Source: Bacillota bacterium
GTDB taxonomy: Bacteria > Bacillota > SHA-98 > UBA4971
Reading direction: 5' to 3'
NCBI GenBank assembly: GCA_012516125.1
Contig: JAAYXB010000039.1
Location: 27,069 to 91,068 of the forward strand
DNA: 64,000 nt
Below the pieces are notes generated by a model. The model was not told the origin of the DNA, made no database searches, and saw nothing but the letters and a program-made list of their open reading frames with translations. Made by a program: the position numbers and the translations under genes. Of this stretch, positions 1,069 through 58,952 are shown piece by piece (positions within the stretch are counted from its first letter, which is position 1; every line of letters starts with the position of its first letter).

Positions 1069-1267
1069 CTAAGTGAGGGTGCAGAAATGCTGCCGACTTT
1101 TGGGAGGGGTTGCCGGTGATTGCACGAGGGGTGTCAAAATCCGGCCACTGGCCAGACGGGCCGGATTTTGGCGAAGCGCGCCCCGCTTGGGGCGCCGTCC
1201 CCGAGTGCAACACCGGCAACCCGGCAACTACTGGAAGAGGGGCGAGAACTAACGCACCCTCACTTAG
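1069..1267 (+). repeat. Nested palindromic repeat, class A copy 1
   Basis: Complete 199-bp copy of the dispersed element. Its ends are CTAAGTGAGGGTGC and the inverse GCACCCTCACTTAG. Inside lies GGTTGCCGGTG, later matched by CACCGGCAACC. The loop carries two further hairpins: AAAATCCGGCC paired with GGCCGGATTTT, and GCGCCCCGC paired with the GGGGCGC that follows. It fills the gap between the capping-subunit gene and the DUF3189 gene. A flanking CGCTCCTAA / TTAGGAGCG pair just outside may be the remains of a palindromic target. Confidence 0.85.
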
Positions 1268-9919: not shown

Positions 9920-10723
9920 ATGGCAGTGAGGATACTCGTGACAAACGACGACGGGATCCTGGCAGACGGCATTCGCGTTCTCGCTGCCGAGCTTGCCACA
10001 CTCGGAGAGGTTGTGGTGGTCGCTCCCGACAGGGAAAGGAGCGCCACGGGGCACGCCATCACGGTGCTCCGCCCTTTGAGGGTCGAGAAGGTTACCATTC
10101 CCGGGGTGAATGCCGAGGCCTGGGCCGTGGACGGGACGCCGTCGGACTGCGTGAAGCTGGCAGTCGAGGCGTTGCTCGAAAGGAGGCCCGATGTGGTCGT
10201 GTCGGGGATCAACCGAGGCCCCAACCTGGGCACTGATGTGCTCTATTCGGGCACGGTTTCGGCGGCGGTGGAGGGAGCGATCTGTGGGCTGCCTTCGATG
10301 GCGCTCTCGATAGCGGCCTTCGAGAACTGCAACTACGAGTTTTCGGCGAAGTTCGGGGCGAGGATGGTCTCGAAGGTGCTGGAGAAAGGCCTTCCCCCCG
10401 ACACACTCCTCAATATCAACGTGCCTTCAGTTGACGAGGAGGATATAGCCGGTGTCGCCATCACCAGACTCGGGGCGCGAAAGTGGAAGGACGTATTCGA
10501 CCGCAGAGTAGACCCCAGGGGGCGGACGTATTACTGGATGGCAGGGGACGTGGTGGATTGCGACGAAGATGAGGACACTGACGCAGTGGCGATACGAAAC
10601 AACCTCGTCTCAATCACCCCGATCCACCTCGACCTTACGAGGTACGACCTCATCGACGAGTTAAAGAAGTGGGGCATCGGCGTGACCTCTTCGCATTCTC
10701 CCGGCGGGCGGCATACTATATAG
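9920..10723 (+). CDS. surE: 5'/3'-nucleotidase SurE
   Basis: 267-residue metal-dependent phosphatase acting on nucleoside monophosphates and related substrates. The metal-binding N terminus VTNDDGILADGI and the family stretch VSGINRGPNLGTDVLYSGT with VSAAVEG are intact. The ATG at 9920 is preferred over the tracked 9905 because GAGGAGTG lies right upstream and the protein then begins MAVRILVTNDDG, the usual SurE N terminus. It is nearly contiguous with the MgtC-like gene, so both likely share the extended -10 promoter. Confidence 0.96.
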   Translation: MAVRILVTNDDGILADGIRVLAAELATLGEVVVVAPDRERSATGHAITVLRPLRVEKVTIPGVNAEAWAVDGTPSDCVKLAVEALLERRPDVVVSGINRGPNLGTDVLYSGTVSAAVEGAICGLPSMALSIAAFENCNYEFSAKFGARMVSKVLEKGLPPDTLLNINVPSVDEEDIAGVAITRLGARKWKDVFDRRVDPRGRTYYWMAGDVVDCDEDEDTDAVAIRNNLVSITPIHLDLTRYDLIDELKKWGIGVTSSHSPGGRHTI

Positions 10724-10747
10724 AAGAGTCGCTTCCCGACCGGGGGT

Positions 10748-10969
10748 ATGACCGTGGGTCTTGCCTGGATGCTGAGGTGTGCGGCCATTCTCTCCCTCGT
10801 CATCATCCTCGAGATGGCCTGGGTAATCTACGCCCACAGATCCCAGGCGCTGCCGCGCGAGGTCATGTCGGTCGCGGTTGGCGTCGTGGCCGCAACTGCC
10901 GTCCTGTATGTGGCCTTGCTATCGTTCATTGCGGTGAGGGTGATGGCACCGCTGATATACGGCCTGTGA
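10748..10969 (+). CDS. Small hypothetical membrane protein
   Basis: 73 residues with two hydrophobic helices (about 10-27 and 40-66) separated by a short polar loop containing HRSQALPRE. GGGGGT lies directly before the ATG; a GTG two codons later would have better spacing. It fills the gap between surE and the D-Ala ligase gene on the same strand. I do not recognise a family. The hydrophobic pattern and position support a real gene, but the short length limits certainty. Confidence 0.5.
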   Translation: MTVGLAWMLRCAAILSLVIILEMAWVIYAHRSQALPREVMSVAVGVVAATAVLYVALLSFIAVRVMAPLIYGL

Positions 10970-11070
10970 ACGTTCCGGTTGCAGCCCCGCATAGAAAGGC
11001 GCATGGAAAGGAGAGGAAGCGCGCCCGCGCTCGCGCGCGGCGGGCGGCCAGGGCGCGCCCGGTCACGACC

Positions 11071-12018
11071 ATGAAGAGAAGAGTTGCCCTGGTACAGGGC
11101 GGGAAATCCGCCGAGAGAGAGATATCGTTGCGCACCGGAGAGCAGGTGGGCGTTGCGCTGAGGCGCAAGGGCCACGAGGTGATCGCCCTCGACCTCGATG
11201 ACGGGCTCGTCCCGGCCCTCCAGAGAGAAAAGCCTGATGTGGTCTTCATCGCGCTTCACGGCAGGTACGGTGAGGACGGCTGCCTGCAGGGACTTCTCGA
11301 GATACTGGGCATCCCTTACGTCGGGTCTGGGGTCCTCGCCAGCGCGCTCGCCATGGACAAGATCATGTCCAAGAAACTCTTCCGGCTGGAAGGGCTTACC
11401 TGCCCTCGCAGCATTACCGTGATAAGAGATGGTCTTGACCGGATCGACGAGGGCAAACTTGTCCAGACGGTTGAAGAAGCCCTGGGGTTTCCGGCCATCG
11501 TGAAGCCCAACAGGGAGGGGTCCACGATCGGGCTTACCCTCGTAAGGGAGCCGGGCAGCCTTTGGGACGCCCTCGCCCGCGCCTTCGAGTACGATCCGGA
11601 GGCACTGGTGGAGGAGTACGTCGAGGGAACCGAAATCACCGTGGGCGTCCTTGGCAACCGTGAGCCGTGGGCCCTTCCGGTGATCGAGATCGTGTCCGCC
11701 ACCGGCCTCTATGACTATAAGGCTAAGTACACAAAGGGTATGAGCGAGCACATCATCCCCGCTCGCGTGGCGCAGGACACGTATAAGGCGGCGCAGGACG
11801 CCGCCGTGAGGGCCCACAAGGCCCTCGGCTGCCGGGGCATGTCCCGCGCGGACTTCATCGTCGGGCCGGGCGGCGTGCCGTACATCCTCGAGGTGAACAC
11901 CATCCCCGGAATGACCGAGACGAGCCTTCTTCCAGATGCCGCCAGGGCGGCGGGCATTGAATTCCCTGACCTTGTTGACATGCTCATCGACTTCGCCCTT
12001 GAGCCTGCCACTAAGTGA
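11071..12018 (+). CDS. ddl: D-alanine--D-alanine ligase
   Basis: 315-residue ATP-grasp enzyme that joins two D-alanines for peptidoglycan precursors. The N-terminal GGKSAEREISLRTG loop, KPNREGSTIGLT, EEYVEGTEITVGVL, and the C-terminal FIVGPGGVPYILEVNTIPGMTE with its metal-binding Asn are present. The tracked ORF runs upstream through the small membrane protein; the ATG at 11071 gives the normal length and N terminus, although no strong ribosome site is visible in the GC-rich sequence before it. The last codons and the stop lie inside the left end of a palindromic repeat: ACTAAGTGA supplies Thr-Lys-stop. Confidence 0.95.
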   Translation: MKRRVALVQGGKSAEREISLRTGEQVGVALRRKGHEVIALDLDDGLVPALQREKPDVVFIALHGRYGEDGCLQGLLEILGIPYVGSGVLASALAMDKIMSKKLFRLEGLTCPRSITVIRDGLDRIDEGKLVQTVEEALGFPAIVKPNREGSTIGLTLVREPGSLWDALARAFEYDPEALVEEYVEGTEITVGVLGNREPWALPVIEIVSATGLYDYKAKYTKGMSEHIIPARVAQDTYKAAQDAAVRAHKALGCRGMSRADFIVGPGGVPYILEVNTIPGMTETSLLPDAARAAGIEFPDLVDMLIDFALEPATK

Positions 12019-12135
12019 GAGTGCAGGAATGCCCCCGACCTTTGGGAGGGGTTGCCGGTGTTGCACTCTCTCTTTGAGTCACCGGCAACCCCCAGATGTT
12101 GGCAAGGTCGGACCAACTAACGAACCCTCACTTAG
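12011..12135 (+). repeat. Nested palindromic repeat, class B with inverted loop
   Basis: Complete 125-bp copy with ends CTAAGTGAGAGTGC and CCCTCACTTAG, and inner GGTTGCCGGTG / CACCGGCAACC. The loop reads TTGCACTCTCTCTTTGAGT, the reverse complement of the loop found between equivalent arms in the 16.4-kb copy. Its left end provides the ddl stop codon. Confidence 0.85.
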
Positions 12136-12205
12136 CGCCGCGCTCGGTACAAAGTATTTCTGAATCACGGCGAGAGAACAGCACGGCTTTCATCACCTTC
12201 GGTAT

Positions 12206-12237
12206 GGGCCCCACGAAAAAAGTGGGGGCCTGTTTTC
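12206..12237 (+). terminator. Rho-independent terminator downstream of ddl
   Basis: GGCCCCAC pairs with GTGGGGGCC across a GAAAAAA-type loop, followed by TGTTTT. It closes the mgtC-surE-ddl stretch after the repeat copy. Confidence 0.8.
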
Positions 12238-12239
12238 CG

Positions 12240-12770
12240 TTTCCAGCAGGAGATTCCAGCAGCGCGTCGAATCACTTCCTTAAGTTCGTTCATACATGCT
12301 AGAAAGCTCGGGCGGATCGGATGACGGCGGCGAAGCGTCTGCCTCGCACCTTGCCCTGTGTACAGGGTTGCCCAGTCGTCCGTCCAGACGGGCATCGCGC
12401 CGGTTGCCGGCGTGCGAGCGTGTGTGCGCCCGCGGCGAGCCTTGAGCACGCCCCTTTCCGCGTCTCTGGGCCTGCGGATATCCTGGCTCCGTGGCTATGC
12501 GGAGGTGCGGAGGGAGTTCTGCTGCCAGGTTCATTCAGCCACACAAGAAAGGAAGGCGCAAGTCGCGTGTGCGTGGGCCGGCAGCATCTGAGCTCCTGGG
12601 CATGTGGTCGAACGGGCCGGGGCGGTGCCGCTGCGAGGCGCGGAGGGGTGCCGGGAAACAGGAGAGGGGGGTGAGCGGCTGCCGGAATGGCGCTCGGCAA
12701 GCGCGCGGCTGTCCCGGACCTTAGTCGGTCAGGAAAGCTACCGGGAAAGGTCCTGGAGAGCCTGACAACC
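12240..12770 (+). other. Gene-less GC-rich region between ddl and sugar ABC locus
   Basis: About 530 bases without a convincing gene: the ORFs on both strands have unlikely compositions and no ribosome sites or family motifs. I looked for tmRNA, RNase P, SRP and 6S signatures and saw none. It may hold regulatory sequence for the sugar locus or gene remains. Confidence 0.5.
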
Positions 12771-12840
12771 GGTCATGGGGCATCGTTGGAAAAGTTCCAG
12801 TGCGGAAGTCTCCATGCGAATCCAGAAGGAGGTTCTCAAG

Positions 12841-14097
12841 GTGCGTAAAGCCATCCTGATCGCTCTGTGCATGGTTGTGCTCGTCGCCGCCTGCGGCCTT
12901 GGAGTGTCCGCAAAGGAGACACTCAACGTCATCTACATGGCTCAGGCGGGGTACCAGCCCGATGACATCCGTGACATGGCCGACCTCTTCGAGTTCCTGA
13001 CGGACACCAAGGTCAACATCACCTTCGTGAAGTACGACGAGCAGCACGAGAAGATCGTCGCCTCTGCCGTGGCACCCGTGGCCACGTACGACGTCATACT
13101 CCTCGACCTCATCTGGACTGCGGAATTCGCTTCGAAGAAGATGGTTGTGCCCCTCGATGACAAGATCACACCTGAGATGCGGAAGGACATAGCCCCGGCC
13201 ATTATGGACGCCTTCGTGTTTGACGGCAAGACGTGGGCCATGCCGTTCCTCGCCAACTTCCAGTTGTTCTTCTATAACGCCGACATGATCAAGAAGGCAG
13301 GCTTCGGCGGCCCGCCGAAGACCCTTGAAGAAATGGTCGAGCAGATGAAGGCCATGAAGGCCAAGAACATCGTCAAGTACCCCTGGACCGACTCATGGAA
13401 CCAGAAAGAGGGCCTTGTCTGCGAGTACGTGTGGCTCACCGGGGCGTTTGGCGGCGACACGTTCGATGCCAGCGGCAAGCCTATCTTCAACGAGGGCCCC
13501 GGCGTCAAGGCGCTTGAGTTCATGGTGAGCCTTCTCAAGGAGGGTCTCGCCAACCCGAAGTGCCTGACCAACGACGAGACCGCGGCGAAGGACGACTTCA
13601 TCTCGGGCAACGCTGCCTTTACCACGAACTGGACGTTCCAGTACGCCCTGATGAACGACCCGGCGGTGTCGAAGGTCGTCGGCGCAGGCGAGATGGGGCT
13701 CATCCCGGTATCCAGTACCGTGGCTGACAAGAAGAAGACGGCGTCTGTCAGTGGCTTCCAGGGTGCTGCTATCATGGCCAACTCCCGTAAGAAGGATCTG
13801 GCCTGGAAGTACGTGAAGTTTATAACGAGCCCGCTGGTGCAGAGGTCCTATCTGCAGGAGATGCCTGTGTGGACTTCGGTCCAGAAGAGCGCGTACGCTA
13901 ACATGATGGACGAGACGATGGCGGTTAAGAGCGAACAGATCGCTGCCGTGCACCACAGGCCGAAGGTGCCGCCGTATCCCGAGGTGTCCTCCATCCTGCA
14001 GAGGTACATCCACCTGGCGCTCCAGATGAAGATGGAGCCGAAGGCGGCGCTGGATAAGGCAGCCGAGGAGATCAAGGCCGTGCTGGCGAAGAAGTAG
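12841..14097 (+). CDS. Sugar ABC transporter substrate-binding lipoprotein (SBP1)
   Basis: 418-residue extracellular solute-binding protein of family 1 (maltose/multiple sugar type). The signal peptide ends in a lipobox VAAC at about residue 20, so the mature protein is lipid-anchored. Family traits include FVKYDEQHEKIVASA, TYDVILLDLIW, TWAMPFLAN and the VSGFQGAAIMANSRKKD stretch near the C terminus. The GTG at 12841 follows AAGGAGG by 9 bases. Two permease genes follow, separated by repeat copies. A paralogue (SBP2 at 18.1 kb), which looks about half identical by eye, belongs to the same locus. The sugar cannot be told from sequence. Confidence 0.9.
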   Translation: MRKAILIALCMVVLVAACGLGVSAKETLNVIYMAQAGYQPDDIRDMADLFEFLTDTKVNITFVKYDEQHEKIVASAVAPVATYDVILLDLIWTAEFASKKMVVPLDDKITPEMRKDIAPAIMDAFVFDGKTWAMPFLANFQLFFYNADMIKKAGFGGPPKTLEEMVEQMKAMKAKNIVKYPWTDSWNQKEGLVCEYVWLTGAFGGDTFDASGKPIFNEGPGVKALEFMVSLLKEGLANPKCLTNDETAAKDDFISGNAAFTTNWTFQYALMNDPAVSKVVGAGEMGLIPVSSTVADKKKTASVSGFQGAAIMANSRKKDLAWKYVKFITSPLVQRSYLQEMPVWTSVQKSAYANMMDETMAVKSEQIAAVHHRPKVPPYPEVSSILQRYIHLALQMKMEPKAALDKAAEEIKAVLAKK

Positions 14098-14103
14098 GCG
14101 CTT

Positions 14104-14302
14104 CTAAGTGGGGGTGCAAAAATGCTTCCGACTTTTGGGAGGGGTTGCCGGTGATTGCACGAGGGGTGTCAAAATCCGGCCACTGGCCTGACCGGCCGGA
14201 TTTTGGCGAAGCGCGCCCCGCTTGGGGCGCCGTCCCCGAGCGCAACACCGGCAACCCGGCAACTACTGGGAATTGGGCAAGGACCAACGCACCCTCACTT
14301 AG
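14104..14302 (+). repeat. Nested palindromic repeat, class A copy 2
   Basis: Complete copy beginning CTAAGTGGGGGTGC and ending GCACCCTCACTTAG. The loop is almost identical to copy 1, with small changes in the AAAATCCGGCC / GGCCGGATTTT hairpin region. It separates SBP1 from its permease genes, starting 7 bases after the SBP1 stop, so a transcript would fold it into a long hairpin. Confidence 0.85.
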
Positions 14303-14343
14303 CGGCCGTGCGCGAGGGCCGCGGCAGCAGATGGCGCGGCCCT

Positions 14344-14413
14344 CAGTCTCTCTTTGAGTCACCGGCAACCCACCAGATGGTGGCAAACGGGGAGGAACTG
14401 ACGAACCTTCACC
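14344..14413 (+). repeat. Partial class B repeat (right half only)
   Basis: CTCTCTTTGAGTCACCGGCA leads into a right arm ACCAGATGGTGGCAAACGG and ends ACGAACCTTCAC. The left arm is missing. It lies 40 bases after the complete class A copy, and its right arm resembles that of the 12.0-kb copy. Confidence 0.75.
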
Positions 14414-14453
14414 TCGCGCGAGTTGGGAAGGGGTTCCACGGGGGTAACGCGAG

Positions 14454-15404
14454 ATGTCTTTACGAAGACGTGATTCCGACGGAAGAAGGCTGGCATGGGG
14501 GCTGCTTGCCCCTAGCACCGCCCTGATAGTCGCCGTGGTCATCGGTCCCCTCCTCTTCGCGCTCTACCTCAGCTTTCAGGAGGCAGAGCCGACGGTGGGC
14601 GGGATAAACATGAGGTTCGTCGGGCTTGCCAATTACGTGCACTACTTCGTCCGTTCGGACCTCTTCTGGCCGGCGGTGCGCGTGACGATCTACTTTACCG
14701 TGGTCTCTCTCGTCATCGAGCTTGTGCTTGGGATCGCCATGGCGCTGGTGCTGAACGAGAAGTTCGCAGGCAGGTCGTTCGTGCGCGCGATCATTTTGCT
14801 CCCATGGGCCGTTCCCACCGTGGTGAACGCGCGAATGTGGGAGTGGATATTCGCGGGTTCCAAGTTCGGCGCGCTGAACGGGCTCATGAAGGTGCTTCAC
14901 GTGTTCCCGCCGACCTACGACCGGGTCTGGCTGGGGTTTGACGTGCCGTTTGAGGGCGTTCCGATACTGGGGCCTTTCTTGAAGTGGATGGGCGTCACGC
15001 GAGCGCTCAACATGATTATTCTCGCCGATACGTGGAAGGTGACGCCGCTCGTGGTGCTTCTCGTGTTGGCAGGCCTGCAAACGATTCCCGACAGTTTGTA
15101 TGAAGCGGCCACGGTGGACGGTGCGGGCTTCTGGCGGAAGCTCACTCACATAACGCTGCCGCTGCTCAAGCCGGTGCTCCTCGTCATCCTGGTGCTGCGC
15201 ACCATGGAGCTTTTCCGTGTGTTTGACATCATTTACATCATAATGCAGTATTCCATCAGAGTGCTGGGCGTGCTCACCTATGAAGTAGGCATGAAGTTCC
15301 TGCATTTCGGCAGCGGTGCGGCGCTGTCGTTCCTGGTGGCCCTGTTCATACTCGGGCTCGCTCTCATATACATTCGCCTCTTTTACACGGAGGAAGGTTA
15401 CTAG
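14454..15404 (+). CDS. Sugar ABC transporter permease, MalF/UgpA type
   Basis: 316-residue membrane protein with six predicted helices. The EAA loop that contacts the ATPase is visible as YEAATVDGAGFWRKLTHITLPLL near residue 220. The start follows GGGGGT; the N terminus RRRDSDGRRLAWGLLAPS is typical for MalF-type permeases of three-component sugar importers. It pairs with the next gene, a MalG-type permease. No ATPase gene lies in the locus, so the complex probably borrows a shared MsmX/MsiK-like ATPase from elsewhere, as is known in other Gram-positive bacteria. Confidence 0.93.
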   Translation: MSLRRRDSDGRRLAWGLLAPSTALIVAVVIGPLLFALYLSFQEAEPTVGGINMRFVGLANYVHYFVRSDLFWPAVRVTIYFTVVSLVIELVLGIAMALVLNEKFAGRSFVRAIILLPWAVPTVVNARMWEWIFAGSKFGALNGLMKVLHVFPPTYDRVWLGFDVPFEGVPILGPFLKWMGVTRALNMIILADTWKVTPLVVLLVLAGLQTIPDSLYEAATVDGAGFWRKLTHITLPLLKPVLLVILVLRTMELFRVFDIIYIIMQYSIRVLGVLTYEVGMKFLHFGSGAALSFLVALFILGLALIYIRLFYTEEGY

Positions 15405-15471
15405 AGCCGAGACCGTCTGTGCCACGATGCGGTCGGGCGGGCCTGGATAGACGAAACCCGGGGGGATCGAT

Positions 15472-16377
15472 GTGAACTTCCCGCGAAGGAAAGGCAAAAT
15501 GCTGCTCTGGCTGCGGCGCGCGGCGCTTTACCTCGCGGTAGCGTCCATTGTGGTCTGGACGCTGGCGCCCGTTGCGTGGCTCGCTATCTCAAGTATCACG
15601 CCTTACAACGAGCTCATATCCGACCGGGCGACCCACTGGCTTCCTCGCCACCCGACCTTCGCGAACTTCAAGGTCATGTTCAACCTTTCGAGCGAGGTCG
15701 GCGAGCGGTTCGTGTACGCCATCCGAAACAGCATGATCGTGGCAAGCTCCGTGACCGCGATATGCCTCGTGGCCGGCACGCTCGCAGCGTATGCCCTGGC
15801 GCGGCTGCCCGTGAGGGGGAAGAAGGCCCTCGTGCTGTCCCTCATGTCCATAAGGATGCTTCCGACCATCGCTCTTGTGATACCGTTTTTCGTGATCGTA
15901 TCGTACATCGACTACGGGTTCATGGGCATTGGGTCTTCGTTCCACCTCTTCGATACAAAGCTCAACCTTGTCATTCTCTACACCACCTTTATCCTGGGGT
16001 TCGTCATCTGGATTATGCGGGGCTTTTTCCTCACAATCCCGATGGAGCTGGAGGAGGCCGCCCGCATCGACGGATGCACGAGGCTGCAGGCGCTCCGTCA
16101 CGTCGTGCTGCCGCTTTGCGCGCCGGGCCTGGTGGCCACCGGCATACTCTCCTTCCTGCTGGCCTGGGACGAGTTCCTCCTGGCCCTCATTTTCACCAGG
16201 TCCAACAACGCTATCACGTTGCCCCTTTTCATCGCAGAGCTGGGGAGCCAGTACATAACCGCCTATGATCAGATATCCGCAGCAGGGATCATGGCTGCGA
16301 TTCCGCCCGTGGTCCTGGCCCTTCTCTTCCAGAGGTTCATCGTACAGGGACTGACATCAGGGAGCGTGAAGGGATGA
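15472..16377 (+). CDS. Sugar ABC transporter permease, MalG/UgpE type
   Basis: 301-residue membrane protein with six predicted helices and an EAA loop LEEAARIDGCTRLQALRHVVLP near residue 190. Partner of the MalF-type permease 67 bases upstream; together they form the transmembrane channel. The GTG start follows CCGGGGGGAT. The stop TGA abuts a palindromic repeat in reverse orientation. Family features at the N terminus, ITPYNELISDRA and the predicted cytoplasmic start, fit a carbohydrate importer. Confidence 0.93.
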   Translation: MNFPRRKGKMLLWLRRAALYLAVASIVVWTLAPVAWLAISSITPYNELISDRATHWLPRHPTFANFKVMFNLSSEVGERFVYAIRNSMIVASSVTAICLVAGTLAAYALARLPVRGKKALVLSLMSIRMLPTIALVIPFFVIVSYIDYGFMGIGSSFHLFDTKLNLVILYTTFILGFVIWIMRGFFLTIPMELEEAARIDGCTRLQALRHVVLPLCAPGLVATGILSFLLAWDEFLLALIFTRSNNAITLPLFIAELGSQYITAYDQISAAGIMAAIPPVVLALLFQRFIVQGLTSGSVKG

Positions 16378-16493
16378 CCCTCGTTAGTTCCTCACACTTT
16401 GTCAGCATCTGGGGGTCGCCGGTGTTGCACACTCTCTCTCTTTGAGTCACCGGCAACCCCAAAAGCCGGAAGCATTCCTGCACTCTCATTTAG
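16378..16493 (-). repeat. Nested palindromic repeat, class B, reverse orientation
   Basis: On the minus strand it runs from CTAAATGAGAGTGCAGGAAT through GGGGTTGCCGGTG, loop ACTCAAAGAGAGAGAGTGTG, CACCGGCGACC and a right arm CCAGATGCTGACAAAG to a decayed end near 16378. Same arms as the 12.0-kb copy but with the loop in the opposite direction. Confidence 0.85.
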
Positions 16494-41918: not shown

Positions 41919-42115
41919 CTAAGTGGGGGTGCAGAAATGCTTCCGGCTTTTGGGAGGGGTTGCCGGTGATTGCACGAGGGGTGTCAAAATCCGGCCACTG
42001 GCCGGACGGGCCGGATTTTGTCAAGGCGCCCCGCTTGGGGCGCCGTCCCCGAGTGCAACACCGGCAACCCGACAACTACTGGAAACGGGGCAAGGACTAA
42101 CGCACCCCCACTTAG
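41919..42115 (+). repeat. Nested palindromic repeat, class A copy 3
   Basis: Complete copy with ends CTAAGTGGGGGTGC and GCACCCCCACTTAG. Both ends carry the same change relative to copy 1, so base pairing of the terminal stem is kept. The loop hairpins match copies 1 and 2 apart from small changes. It lies before hisS. Confidence 0.85.
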
Positions 42116-43538: not shown

Positions 43539-43697
43539 CGGACGGGAAACGGGAGCCCGCCTTCACCACTTCTGCTCTGTTCATGATGCAAGCGAAACGC
43601 CTCGTGACGAGCCCGGCGCGCCCGGTCGCGGGGGCGGCGCCGGGCGAGGTTTATCGCGAGTAGCCGTTAGGCATTGATTGTCAGCCACCGGGCATCG

Positions 43698-43824
43698 CTT
43701 AGTGGAGGTGCACAAAATGCTCCCGACTTTTGGGAGGGGTTGCCGGTGACTCAAAGAGAGAGTGCAACACCGGCAACCCGGCAGCTGCTGGAAGACGGGC
43801 GACGACCAATGCACCATTACTTAG
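43698..43824 (+). repeat. Nested palindromic repeat, class B, standard loop
   Basis: Complete 127-bp copy from CTTAGTGGAGGTGC to CACCATTACTTAG, with inner GGTTGCCGGTG / CACCGGCAACC and loop ACTCAAAGAGAGAGTGCAA. Its right arm resembles the class A right arm, so arms and loops are shuffled among copies. It lies before aspS and contains the tracked ORF start. Confidence 0.85.
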
Positions 43825-45771: not shown

Positions 45772-45982
45772 GGCACATAAGTGAAGAGCCGAAGACCCTA
45801 CCGTGTGCGATGTGGTGCTGGTAACTTCTGTTCCAACACCATATGAAAGGGAGCCCGGGCTCCGGGTGCGGCGCGTATGCCGCGGTGGTGCGGACACGCA
45901 AAACATCTGGGAGGGCACCCACCTGCAGGGCGCAGGGATATGAGATGTTACCGGTAAGACGGCACGGTGGGGTCTTCTTTTT
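45772..45982 (+). ncRNA. ssrS: 6S RNA (RNA polymerase regulator)
   Basis: About 210 bases between aspS and rarA. GAAGACCCTACCGTGT at 45791 pairs over 16 bp, including two G-T pairs, with GCACGGTGGGGTCTTC ending at 45977, forming the closing stem. A hairpin GGTGCTGG / CCAACACC lies on the 5' side of the centre, and GCGGC / GCCGC caps the apical arm. A run of T follows as terminator. Size, long closing stem, own promoter and position near rarA all fit 6S RNA, which binds housekeeping RNA polymerase as an open-promoter mimic. A structured leader is the alternative. Confidence 0.75.
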
Positions 45983-57713: not shown

Positions 57714-57792
57714 GCGCGGGTGCACAGAGGGCGGTAAGGCGGAGCATCCCGTGTGGGGGCAGAGTCTTGCAGCGATTCTGCAAGAGGTACAG

Positions 57793-57917
57793 GGCTGCCG
57801 GTGCTTGCACGACAGGGCGTCGGAATTCGGTCACTTGCTTGCGTGCCGAATTCCGTCGAGGCGCTCCGCTTGGGGGGCCGTCCGCGGAGTGCAACAGCGG
57901 CAACCCGCCGAGAAGTG
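57793..57917 (+). repeat. Diverged class A repeat copy with compensated hairpin
   Basis: Inner part only: GCTGCCGGTGCTTGCACGA through GGAGTGCAACAGCGGCAACC. The loop hairpin is now CGGAATTCGG / CCGAATTCCG instead of AAAATCCGGCC / GGCCGGATTTT, so sequence has changed while pairing is kept. The outer ends are missing. Confidence 0.65.
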
Positions 57918-57956
57918 GCAGTGATTCCTAAGCTTGCGCCAGGTGACGTAAAGGGC

Positions 57957-58952
57957 ATGGCAGGGACAGCGGTATGCAGCCTCGAGCGCAGGGCGCTCGG
58001 CAAGACGGGACTCGTTGTGTCAAGGATATGCTTCGGAACCCTGACGATGGGGCCACTCCAGGCGAAGCTGTCCATTAAGGAGGGGGCATCGCTTATACGG
58101 ACCGCCATGGACGCCGGAGTGAACTTCATCGACACAGCCGAGCTTTACGGCACATACGAGTATATCCGCGAGGCGATCTCCGGGAGGGGCGGCATGCACA
58201 GCCGGGACCGGGATTCAGTGGTGATCGCCTCCAAGTCCTATGACTACACGTATGAGGGGATGCGGCAGACGGTCGAGCGGGCGCTTCAGTCCATGGGCAT
58301 AGATTACATCGACATCTTTCTGCTGCACGAGCAGGAGTCGGCGCTCACGCTGAAAGGACACCAGGAGGCGCTGCGGTACCTGGCTCGCGCACGCGAGGCG
58401 GGGAAAGTGCGGGCGATTGGTGTATCCACTCACCACGTCGCGTGCGTCAGGGCGGCCGCTGCGATGCCCGAAATAGACGTGATTCATCCCCTCCTCAACC
58501 GGTCGGGCATCGGGATAGCCGACGGGACGGCGTCGGATATGCTGGAGGCGGTACGGGAGGCACACGATGCCGGCAAGGGCGTCTACTCCATGAAAGCGCT
58601 GGGCGGTGGCGCGCTGCTGGACGACGTGGAGGGCTCGCTTGGGTGGGTGCTCGCCCAGCCATGCGTGGATTCGATCGCCGTGGGCATCAAGACCCTAGAT
58701 GAGCTTCGCATGGACCTCGCGGTTTTCGAGGGTCGGCGCCCCGACGACGCCCTCCGCGAGCGGACGCGGCAGAACAAGGCGCTCATCATCGAGCCATGGT
58801 GCACCGGCTGCGGGACGTGCGTTGCGAGGTGCACGCACGGGGCGCTCAGGATTGCGCCAGAAACGGGCCGCGCGGCCGTAGACACGGCCCGGTGCGTGCT
58901 GTGCGGCTATTGCCAGGCGGCGTGCCCGGAGTTTTGCATGAAGGTGGTTTAG
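57957..58952 (+). CDS. Aldo/keto reductase fused to a two-cluster ferredoxin domain
   Basis: 331 residues. AKR barrel with the tetrad in FIDTAELYGTYEY (Asp, Tyr), ASKSY (Lys) and FLLHEQES (His). At the C terminus come CTGCGTCVARCTHGAL and CVLCGYCQAACPEFC, a double 4Fe-4S ferredoxin motif (two CxxCxxCxxxC sets). Such fusions probably take electrons from or give them to ferredoxin; the substrate is unknown. The start 57957 is taken because it has AAAGGG upstream and the AKR begins LERRALGKTGLVVSRI; the tracked start runs into a repeat copy. It lies between the baseplate-J-like gene and ruvX, 5 bases before the latter. Confidence 0.9.
   Translation: MAGTAVCSLERRALGKTGLVVSRICFGTLTMGPLQAKLSIKEGASLIRTAMDAGVNFIDTAELYGTYEYIREAISGRGGMHSRDRDSVVIASKSYDYTYEGMRQTVERALQSMGIDYIDIFLLHEQESALTLKGHQEALRYLARAREAGKVRAIGVSTHHVACVRAAAAMPEIDVIHPLLNRSGIGIADGTASDMLEAVREAHDAGKGVYSMKALGGGALLDDVEGSLGWVLAQPCVDSIAVGIKTLDELRMDLAVFEGRRPDDALRERTRQNKALIIEPWCTGCGTCVARCTHGALRIAPETGRAAVDTARCVLCGYCQAACPEFCMKVV

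What the first reader, a model, noticed from the sequence alone, without database searches (positions are those of the whole stretch)
12011..16493. The inner loop of the repeat is inverted between copies that share the same arms
The 12.0-kb copy has the loop TTGCACTCTCTCTTTGAGT between its left arm and the CCAGATG-type right arm. The 16.4-kb copy, read on the minus strand, has the same arms but the loop ACTCAAAGAGAGAGAGTGTG..., its reverse complement. The 43.7-kb copy has the second orientation, and the 14.34-kb half copy the first. The loop is flanked by GGTTGCCGGTG / CACCGGCAACC, so recombination or replication slippage across these could flip it.
Basis: seen in the sequence. Interest (0 to 1): 0.7.

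Follow-up and report, generated by a model that had tools for sequence, protein, structure and literature searches.

The report
Mosaic mobile hairpins with inherited loop orientation
The repeats are small gene-less mobile DNA hairpins whose central loop really does sit in both orientations, but where the same copy could be compared between sister species its orientation is unchanged, so this looks like old reshuffling between copies, not a live on/off switch.

Summary
With arms aligned, the 12.0-kb copy carries the 19-nt loop one way and the 16.4-kb and 43.7-kb copies the other. The repeats belong to a MITE-like family with hundreds of matching sites in this genome and in the sister species G004. 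Insertion at CTAG with a duplicated TA, seen at two empty sites, points to the IS630/Tc1-mariner type; no matching transposase was found. Each copy is left arm, 11-bp palindromic stem, loop, right arm. Loops come as short S (19 nt) or long L (about 92 nt). Orientation mostly follows arm family: arm A copies 154 'minus' against 16 'plus'; D-E copies 31 'plus' against 1 'minus'. Among 16 loci shared between species with both arms at least 85% identical, none was inverted; 14 keep the same loop and 2 (the 12.0-kb locus among them) differ as S against L with orientation kept. S and L are nearly unlinked to arms; orientation is not. Best reading: the stem is a junction at which copies exchange loops and arms; orientation is inherited and changes rarely, mainly when a core from an oppositely oriented family is copied in. 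The first inversion is not resolved. A phase-variable switch is not supported.

The parts
12011..12135 (+). MITE copy A-S(plus)-B' (TA duplicates at 12012-12013 and 12133-12134)
   Evidence: the G004 orthologue has the same right arm and flank but the long loop
12050..12060 (.). left half of palindromic core stem GGTTGCCGGTG
12061..12079 (+). short loop S, plus orientation (TTGCACTCTCTCTTTGAGT)
12080..12090 (.). right half of core stem CACCGGCAACC
14104..14302 (+). MITE copy A-L(minus)-C', core 14143-14256; absent from G004
14345..14418 (+). half copy: partial S loop, right stem and B' arm; absent from G004
16381..16493 (-). MITE copy A-S(minus)-B' read on the minus strand; core 16414-16458, loop 16425-16447 (23 nt); absent from G004
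43695..43824 (+). MITE copy A-S(minus)-C', core 43738-43778 (outer ends approximate)
1108..1221 (+). core of an A-L(minus)-C' copy
41958..42069 (+). core of an A-L(minus)-C' copy

Best explanation
The repeats are copies of a palindromic, gene-less MITE family that inserts at CTAG with a duplicated TA, the IS630/Tc1-mariner target pattern. The 11-bp palindromic stem around the loop acts as a junction where different copies recombine (gene conversion or template switching), swapping loop type (S or L) and arms. Orientation of the loop is inherited with each copy. It changes rarely: when a core is copied in from a family that carries it the other way, or when halves join in reverse polarity, which the palindromic stem allows. 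SHOWN: both orientations; mosaic arms and loops; S/L nearly unlinked to arms while orientation is linked; no inversion at 16 orthologous same-arm loci. INFERRED: that the exchange is homologous recombination, that the stem is the junction, and that the mobilising enzyme is IS630-like.
For: TA/CTAG target: empty sites CCCCTAGATCC (G000 C8) and TTACTAGAGCC (window 15403) against filled G004 sites reading CTA[AGT..ACT]TAG; 262 of 297 TAAGT ends are preceded by C, and CTAG is rare (25 in the window, 215 expected from base composition). Orientation by family, 224 cores: arm A with any right arm except A, S 78 minus/10 plus, L 76 minus/6 plus; D-E, S 19 plus/0 minus, L 12 plus/1 minus. Orthologous loci: 16 with both arms at least 85% identical = 14 same loop and orientation, 2 S-L changes with orientation kept, 0 inverted. 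Among 73 pairs with arms at least 95% identical (known orthologues removed), 32 differ in loop type (36.5 expected by within-class shuffles) and 1 in orientation (6.2 expected, P=0.14); at 85%, 69 of 2178 are opposite against 273 expected (P<0.001). Recombinants: A-S-E', D-S-C', and same-polarity A-L-A' and C-L-E'. The one inverted D-E copy (G004 C1:50235) carries a loop identical to A-L(minus)-C copies such as G004 C106:28075 and G000 C92:83174.
Against: No reads; recombination is inferred from mosaics, not seen. The arms are short (about 46 nt), so trees are poorly resolved: 11 parsimony changes of orientation, only 2 forced by well-supported branches. At the tightest identity (95%) the orientation deficit is not significant by itself (P=0.14). 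The first inversion between families still needs an inverting event. No transposase with matching ends was found. G000 and G004 are draft assemblies with contigs ending inside repeats, so some S/L differences could be assembly errors.
Confidence: 0.62

Rival explanations
1. Cis hairpin inversion: the stem-loop folds back and template switching (or cruciform cleavage) inverts the loop in place, as in chloroplast small inversions; then the flipped copy is inherited and spreads.
For: Palindromic 11-bp stem around a 19-92 nt loop, the geometry reported for chloroplast small inversions (PMC2903610, passages) and for spacer inversion by template switching between inverted repeats (PMC8604942, abstract start in search listing). 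Both loop types occur both ways. Some inverting event is needed to explain the opposite orientation in A and D-E families. The core folds as a strong hairpin.
Against: 0 inversions in 16 orthologous same-arm loci. Orientation is tied to arm subtype. The inverted D-E loop matches A-family loops exactly, so copying from another element suffices there.
Confidence: 0.23
2. Stem-loop-replacing transposition, as proposed for IS1272: the core is itself a hairpin-targeting mobile unit that replaces an existing stem-loop in either orientation.
For: S and L cores exchange within the same arms, e.g. the 12.0-kb locus; L has its own near-inverted ends GGTTGCCGGTG(A)TTGCAC; IS1272 replaces inverted-repeat targets without target duplication (PMC5678879, abstract and passages).
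Against: Only 3 of 224 cores lack recognisable MITE arms on both sides. Orientation is not randomised although loop type is. PF05598 hits in G000, G001 and G004 have no matching ends within 1.5 kb.
Confidence: 0.08
3. Programmed inversion (inverton-like switch) by a site-specific recombinase.
For: Inverted repeats flank an invertible segment between transporter genes.
Against: Orientation is fixed between species at shared same-arm loci; the segment is only 19 nt; hundreds of dispersed copies; none of the 8 ORFs scanned is a recombinase (no genome-wide recombinase search was made).
Confidence: 0.02
4. Independent insertions of different family members at the same rare CTAG site account for many of the loci that differ between species (compatible with the best explanation, not exclusive of it).
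For: Sites with quite different arms in the two species: C43:65923, C61:4409, C22:3333 and G004 C1:50235 against G000 C48. CTAG is rare.
Against: Cannot explain the 12.0-kb locus, where the right arm and flank match and the visible 13 nt of left arm are identical but the loop differs, nor mosaic arm combinations.
Confidence: 0.5

Closest known systems
IS630/Tc1-mariner-type MITEs (Nezha and pneumococcal RUP are recalled as examples)
   Same: Short, gene-less, inverted ends, TA duplicated on insertion, CTAG preference
   Different: Nested palindromic core with exchangeable loops in two orientations; no parent transposase found
Small hairpin inversions of chloroplast DNA (trnH-psbA; PMC2903610)
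   Same: Palindromic stem, short loop found in both orientations
   Different: Chloroplast inversions recur at one locus, even within species; here orientation is stable between species at shared same-arm loci and follows arm family
IS1272 stem-loop-replacing transposition (PMC5678879)
   Same: A hairpin is replaced by another hairpin-ended unit
   Different: No matching transposase; cores almost never occur outside MITE arms; orientation not random
REP/BIME elements
   Same: Dispersed intergenic palindromes with alternating orientations
   Different: CTAG/TA insertion pattern; RAYT transposases were not searched for

Membership tests
IS630/Tc1-mariner MITE | TA target duplication, CTAG preference | tested here: met
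   Two empty/filled site pairs; 262 of 297 TAAGT ends preceded by C. The G004 empty site for 14.1 kb reads CTTTCAGCGG, so it does not give a clean CTAG
IS630/Tc1-mariner MITE | Terminal inverted repeats, no transposase gene inside | tested here: met
   Ends CTAAGTGAGRGTKC inverted; elements about 110-200 bp
IS630/Tc1-mariner MITE | Autonomous partner with the same ends | tested here: inconclusive
   PF13358 in G000, G001, G003, G004: one hit each in G000 and G003, no matching ends in the fetched loci
Inverton / phase-variable switch | Both orientations in one population | not testable with these tools
   no reads
Inverton / phase-variable switch | Orientation varies at a fixed locus | tested here: not met
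   0 of 16 orthologous same-arm loci inverted between species
IS1272-like stem-loop replacement | Transposase with matching terminal repeats | tested here: not met
   PF05598 in six genomes: 5 hits, none with matching ends within 1.5 kb; only this one transposase family was searched
Chloroplast-type hairpin small inversion | In-place loop inversion between close relatives | tested here: inconclusive
   one candidate (C32/C139) but arms 77-78% identical
REP/BIME | RAYT (TnpA-REP) transposase and REP tetranucleotide | not tested
   no search made

The most novel reading that the evidence does not exclude
The palindromic stem is an active exchange hub: a MITE population in which arms and stem-loop cassettes reassort in both polarities, driven by a dedicated hairpin-processing activity (a MITE transposase acting on the inner hairpin, or structure-specific replacement), so the family evolves as interchangeable modules.
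Probability: 0.15. Interest if true: 0.65.

Novelty: new variant of a known kind. Interest (0 to 1): 0.4.

Why it matters
It shows how a palindrome can let copies of a small mobile element swap parts, including in reverse, so that apparent 'flips' need not be a switch. It also gives a natural count that separates loop exchange (frequent) from loop inversion (rare), and a warning that loop orientation in palindromic repeats is not by itself evidence of phase variation.

Tried and rejected
Phase-variable switch: rejected on locus stability. Simple chance similarity: rejected. Nested mobile core: few solo cores, no transposase. Known RNA family: Rfam finds only 6S RNA at 45792-45977. G003 as a further well-covered species: most of its fetched elements read N inside. 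The genome-contig scan listed matches mostly in unrelated organisms, which I did not examine; it named G004 (JACIXY01, MAG-64; contig lengths agree) and one more related copy (L227, read). First reading of C32/C139 as a clean in-place flip was withdrawn when its arms proved to be of different subtypes.

Literature: seven searches showed no report of orientation-keeping loop exchange in MITEs among the titles and abstract starts listed; most subscription journals are missing from the library. Papers opened: PMC5678879 (outline, abstract, passages), PMC2903610, PMC2170065 and PMC10969869 (passages only).

Limits of the sample: G004 S pattern matches 91, S cores analysed 70; L pattern matches 113 in G004 and 110 in G000, L cores analysed 44 and 59. 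Stretches were chosen partly by pattern, so loop conservation is biased and not used. Cores with neither a known loop nor a known arm were dropped before the 224; their number was not printed. The arm comparison used 189 of the 224 cores (A, D or F left arm; B, B2, C or E right arm; full-length arms); the tree used 155.

Full report
WHAT IS THERE. The window is G000:C22:27069-91068 of a 3.24-Mb draft genome in 98 contigs. The repeat at 12.0 kb and its relatives share an outer end CTAAGTGAGRGTKC, an arm of about 40-55 nt, a palindromic stem GGTTGCCGGTG / CACCGGCAACC, and a loop. Two loops dominate: S, 19 nt, and L, about 92 nt and itself made of nested inverted repeats. Exact stem-loop-stem matches number 31 per strand in G000 with 0 in the reversed-pattern control; with a slightly shorter stem there are 33 in G000, 54 in G004, 10 in G001, 4 in G003, 1 in G005 and 0 in G002, and 7 of 41 genomes searched have any match. 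Relaxed patterns give 91 S sites in G004 and 110 and 113 L sites in G000 and G004.

On a common arm order, 12.0 kb has the loop TTGCACTCTCTCTTTGAGT; 16.4 kb and 43.7 kb have the inverse; the 14.34-kb half copy has the first. The 16.4-kb loop is 4 nt longer.

WHAT IT IS. Two filled/empty pairs between G000 and G004 show insertion at CTAG with TA on both sides: CCCCTAGATCC and TTACTAGAGCC are empty in G000 and filled in G004. Of 297 TAAGT ends found near cores, 262 are preceded by C; CTAG occurs 25 times in the window against 215 expected from base composition. This is the target pattern of IS630/Tc1-mariner elements (PMC2170065, passages; the CTAG preference of IS630 appears there only as the title of a cited paper). 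No parent was found: PF13358 gave one hit in each of G000 and G003 among four genomes, PF05598 five hits in six genomes, and none had matching ends nearby. So the element works like an IS630-type MITE; its membership rests on the target and the ends, not on an enzyme.

ORIENTATION BY FAMILY. I fetched stretches around part of the copies and found 224 cores. Plus means TTGCACTC next to the arm named first. Arm A with any right arm except A: S 78 minus, 10 plus; L 76 minus, 6 plus; one further L minus has A arms on both sides. D-E: S 19 plus, 0 minus; L 12 plus, 1 minus. So both loops follow the arm family. Within A-C copies the C2 right-arm subtype has 8 plus and 12 minus, the other C arms 1 plus and 99 minus (Fisher P 1.2e-6, not corrected for relatedness). 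A right-arm tree of 155 copies needs 11 orientation changes (shuffled mean 14.5; 2 of 500 shuffles as low) but only 2 are forced by well-supported branches, and it needs 40 changes of loop type.

LOCUS BY LOCUS. Both flanks match between species at 23 sites: 18 scored the same in loop and orientation, 2 inverted, 3 S-L changes. Arms show which are truly the same copy. C22:3333 (scored as same), C43:65923 and C61:4409 have quite different arms in the two species, and C32:24973 and C7:1237 have arms only 72-78% identical, so site re-use or larger replacement is likely. Adding two one-flank pairs (C79:129012 and the 12.0-kb locus), 16 of the 25 pairs compared have both arms at least 85% identical: 14 unchanged, 2 with loop type changed and orientation kept (C5:10457 and the 12.0-kb locus), 0 inverted. 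At 12.0 kb, G004 has an identical right arm and a matching right flank but the L loop; its contig begins 13 nt before the core, so its left flank is unseen. Minority-orientation copies C69:10811 and C21:12261 keep their orientation in G004. C84:25682 is absent from G004, and the region there is rearranged, without a clean CTAG.

EXCHANGE VERSUS FLIP. With known orthologues removed, 73 pairs have arms at least 95% identical; 32 differ in loop type (36.5 expected by within-class shuffles) and 1 in orientation (6.2 expected, P=0.14). At 85%, 2178 pairs: 1010 differ in loop type (1075 expected, P=0.018) and 69 in orientation (273 expected, P<0.001). Loop type is thus nearly free of the arms; orientation is not. 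An orientation-blind process such as hairpin replacement would not give that. Mosaic elements show arm joining at the core: A-S-E', D-S-C', D-L-G', G-L-B', and same-polarity A-L-A' with two different A arms and C-L-E'. The single inverted D-E copy, G004 C1:50235, carries an L core identical to A-L(minus)-C copies, so copying a core in trans explains it without a flip in cis; the corresponding G000 site holds a different element.

MECHANISM. I favour recombination in trans with the palindromic stem as junction. Because the stem reads the same both ways, a donor or a half-element can join in either polarity, and rarely does. How the A and D-E families first came to differ is open; hairpin template switching is the natural candidate, being known for small inversions in chloroplasts (PMC2903610, passages) and for spacer inversion between inverted repeats (PMC8604942, abstract start in search listing).

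LIMITS.

Noticed in passing
10669-12018: The D-Ala-D-Ala ligase-like ORF ends at a TGA lying inside the 12.0-kb MITE, so the insertion supplies the stop codon; the G001 orthologous stretch has no element there.
   Followed up: partly
57793-57905: An L-like core without recognisable MITE arms lies inside a predicted aldo/keto reductase ORF (57753-58952).
   Followed up: no
L061:3140-3223 and L081:960-1240 (G004 C131 end, C72): In G004 an E-arm insertion at the site matching window 15403 ends C131 with what looks like the start of an L-type loop, while C72 joins an identical E arm with an S loop to the other flank of the same site: rearrangement or chimeric assembly.
   Followed up: partly
L371-L390 (G003): Most MITE copies fetched from G003 read N in their inner part, so loops cannot be scored there.
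   Followed up: no
L052 (G001 C4) and L053 (G003 C51): Element and both 600-nt flanks match at about 100% between two species, unlike other loci: possible recent transfer or binning error.
   Followed up: no
45792-45977: 6S RNA (RF00013), the only Rfam match at gathering threshold in the window.
   Followed up: no
L044 / G000:C32:10694-10741: An S core with a 9-nt insertion at the stem-loop border (looks like a tandem duplication) that the G004 orthologue lacks: possible replication slippage at the hairpin.
   Followed up: partly
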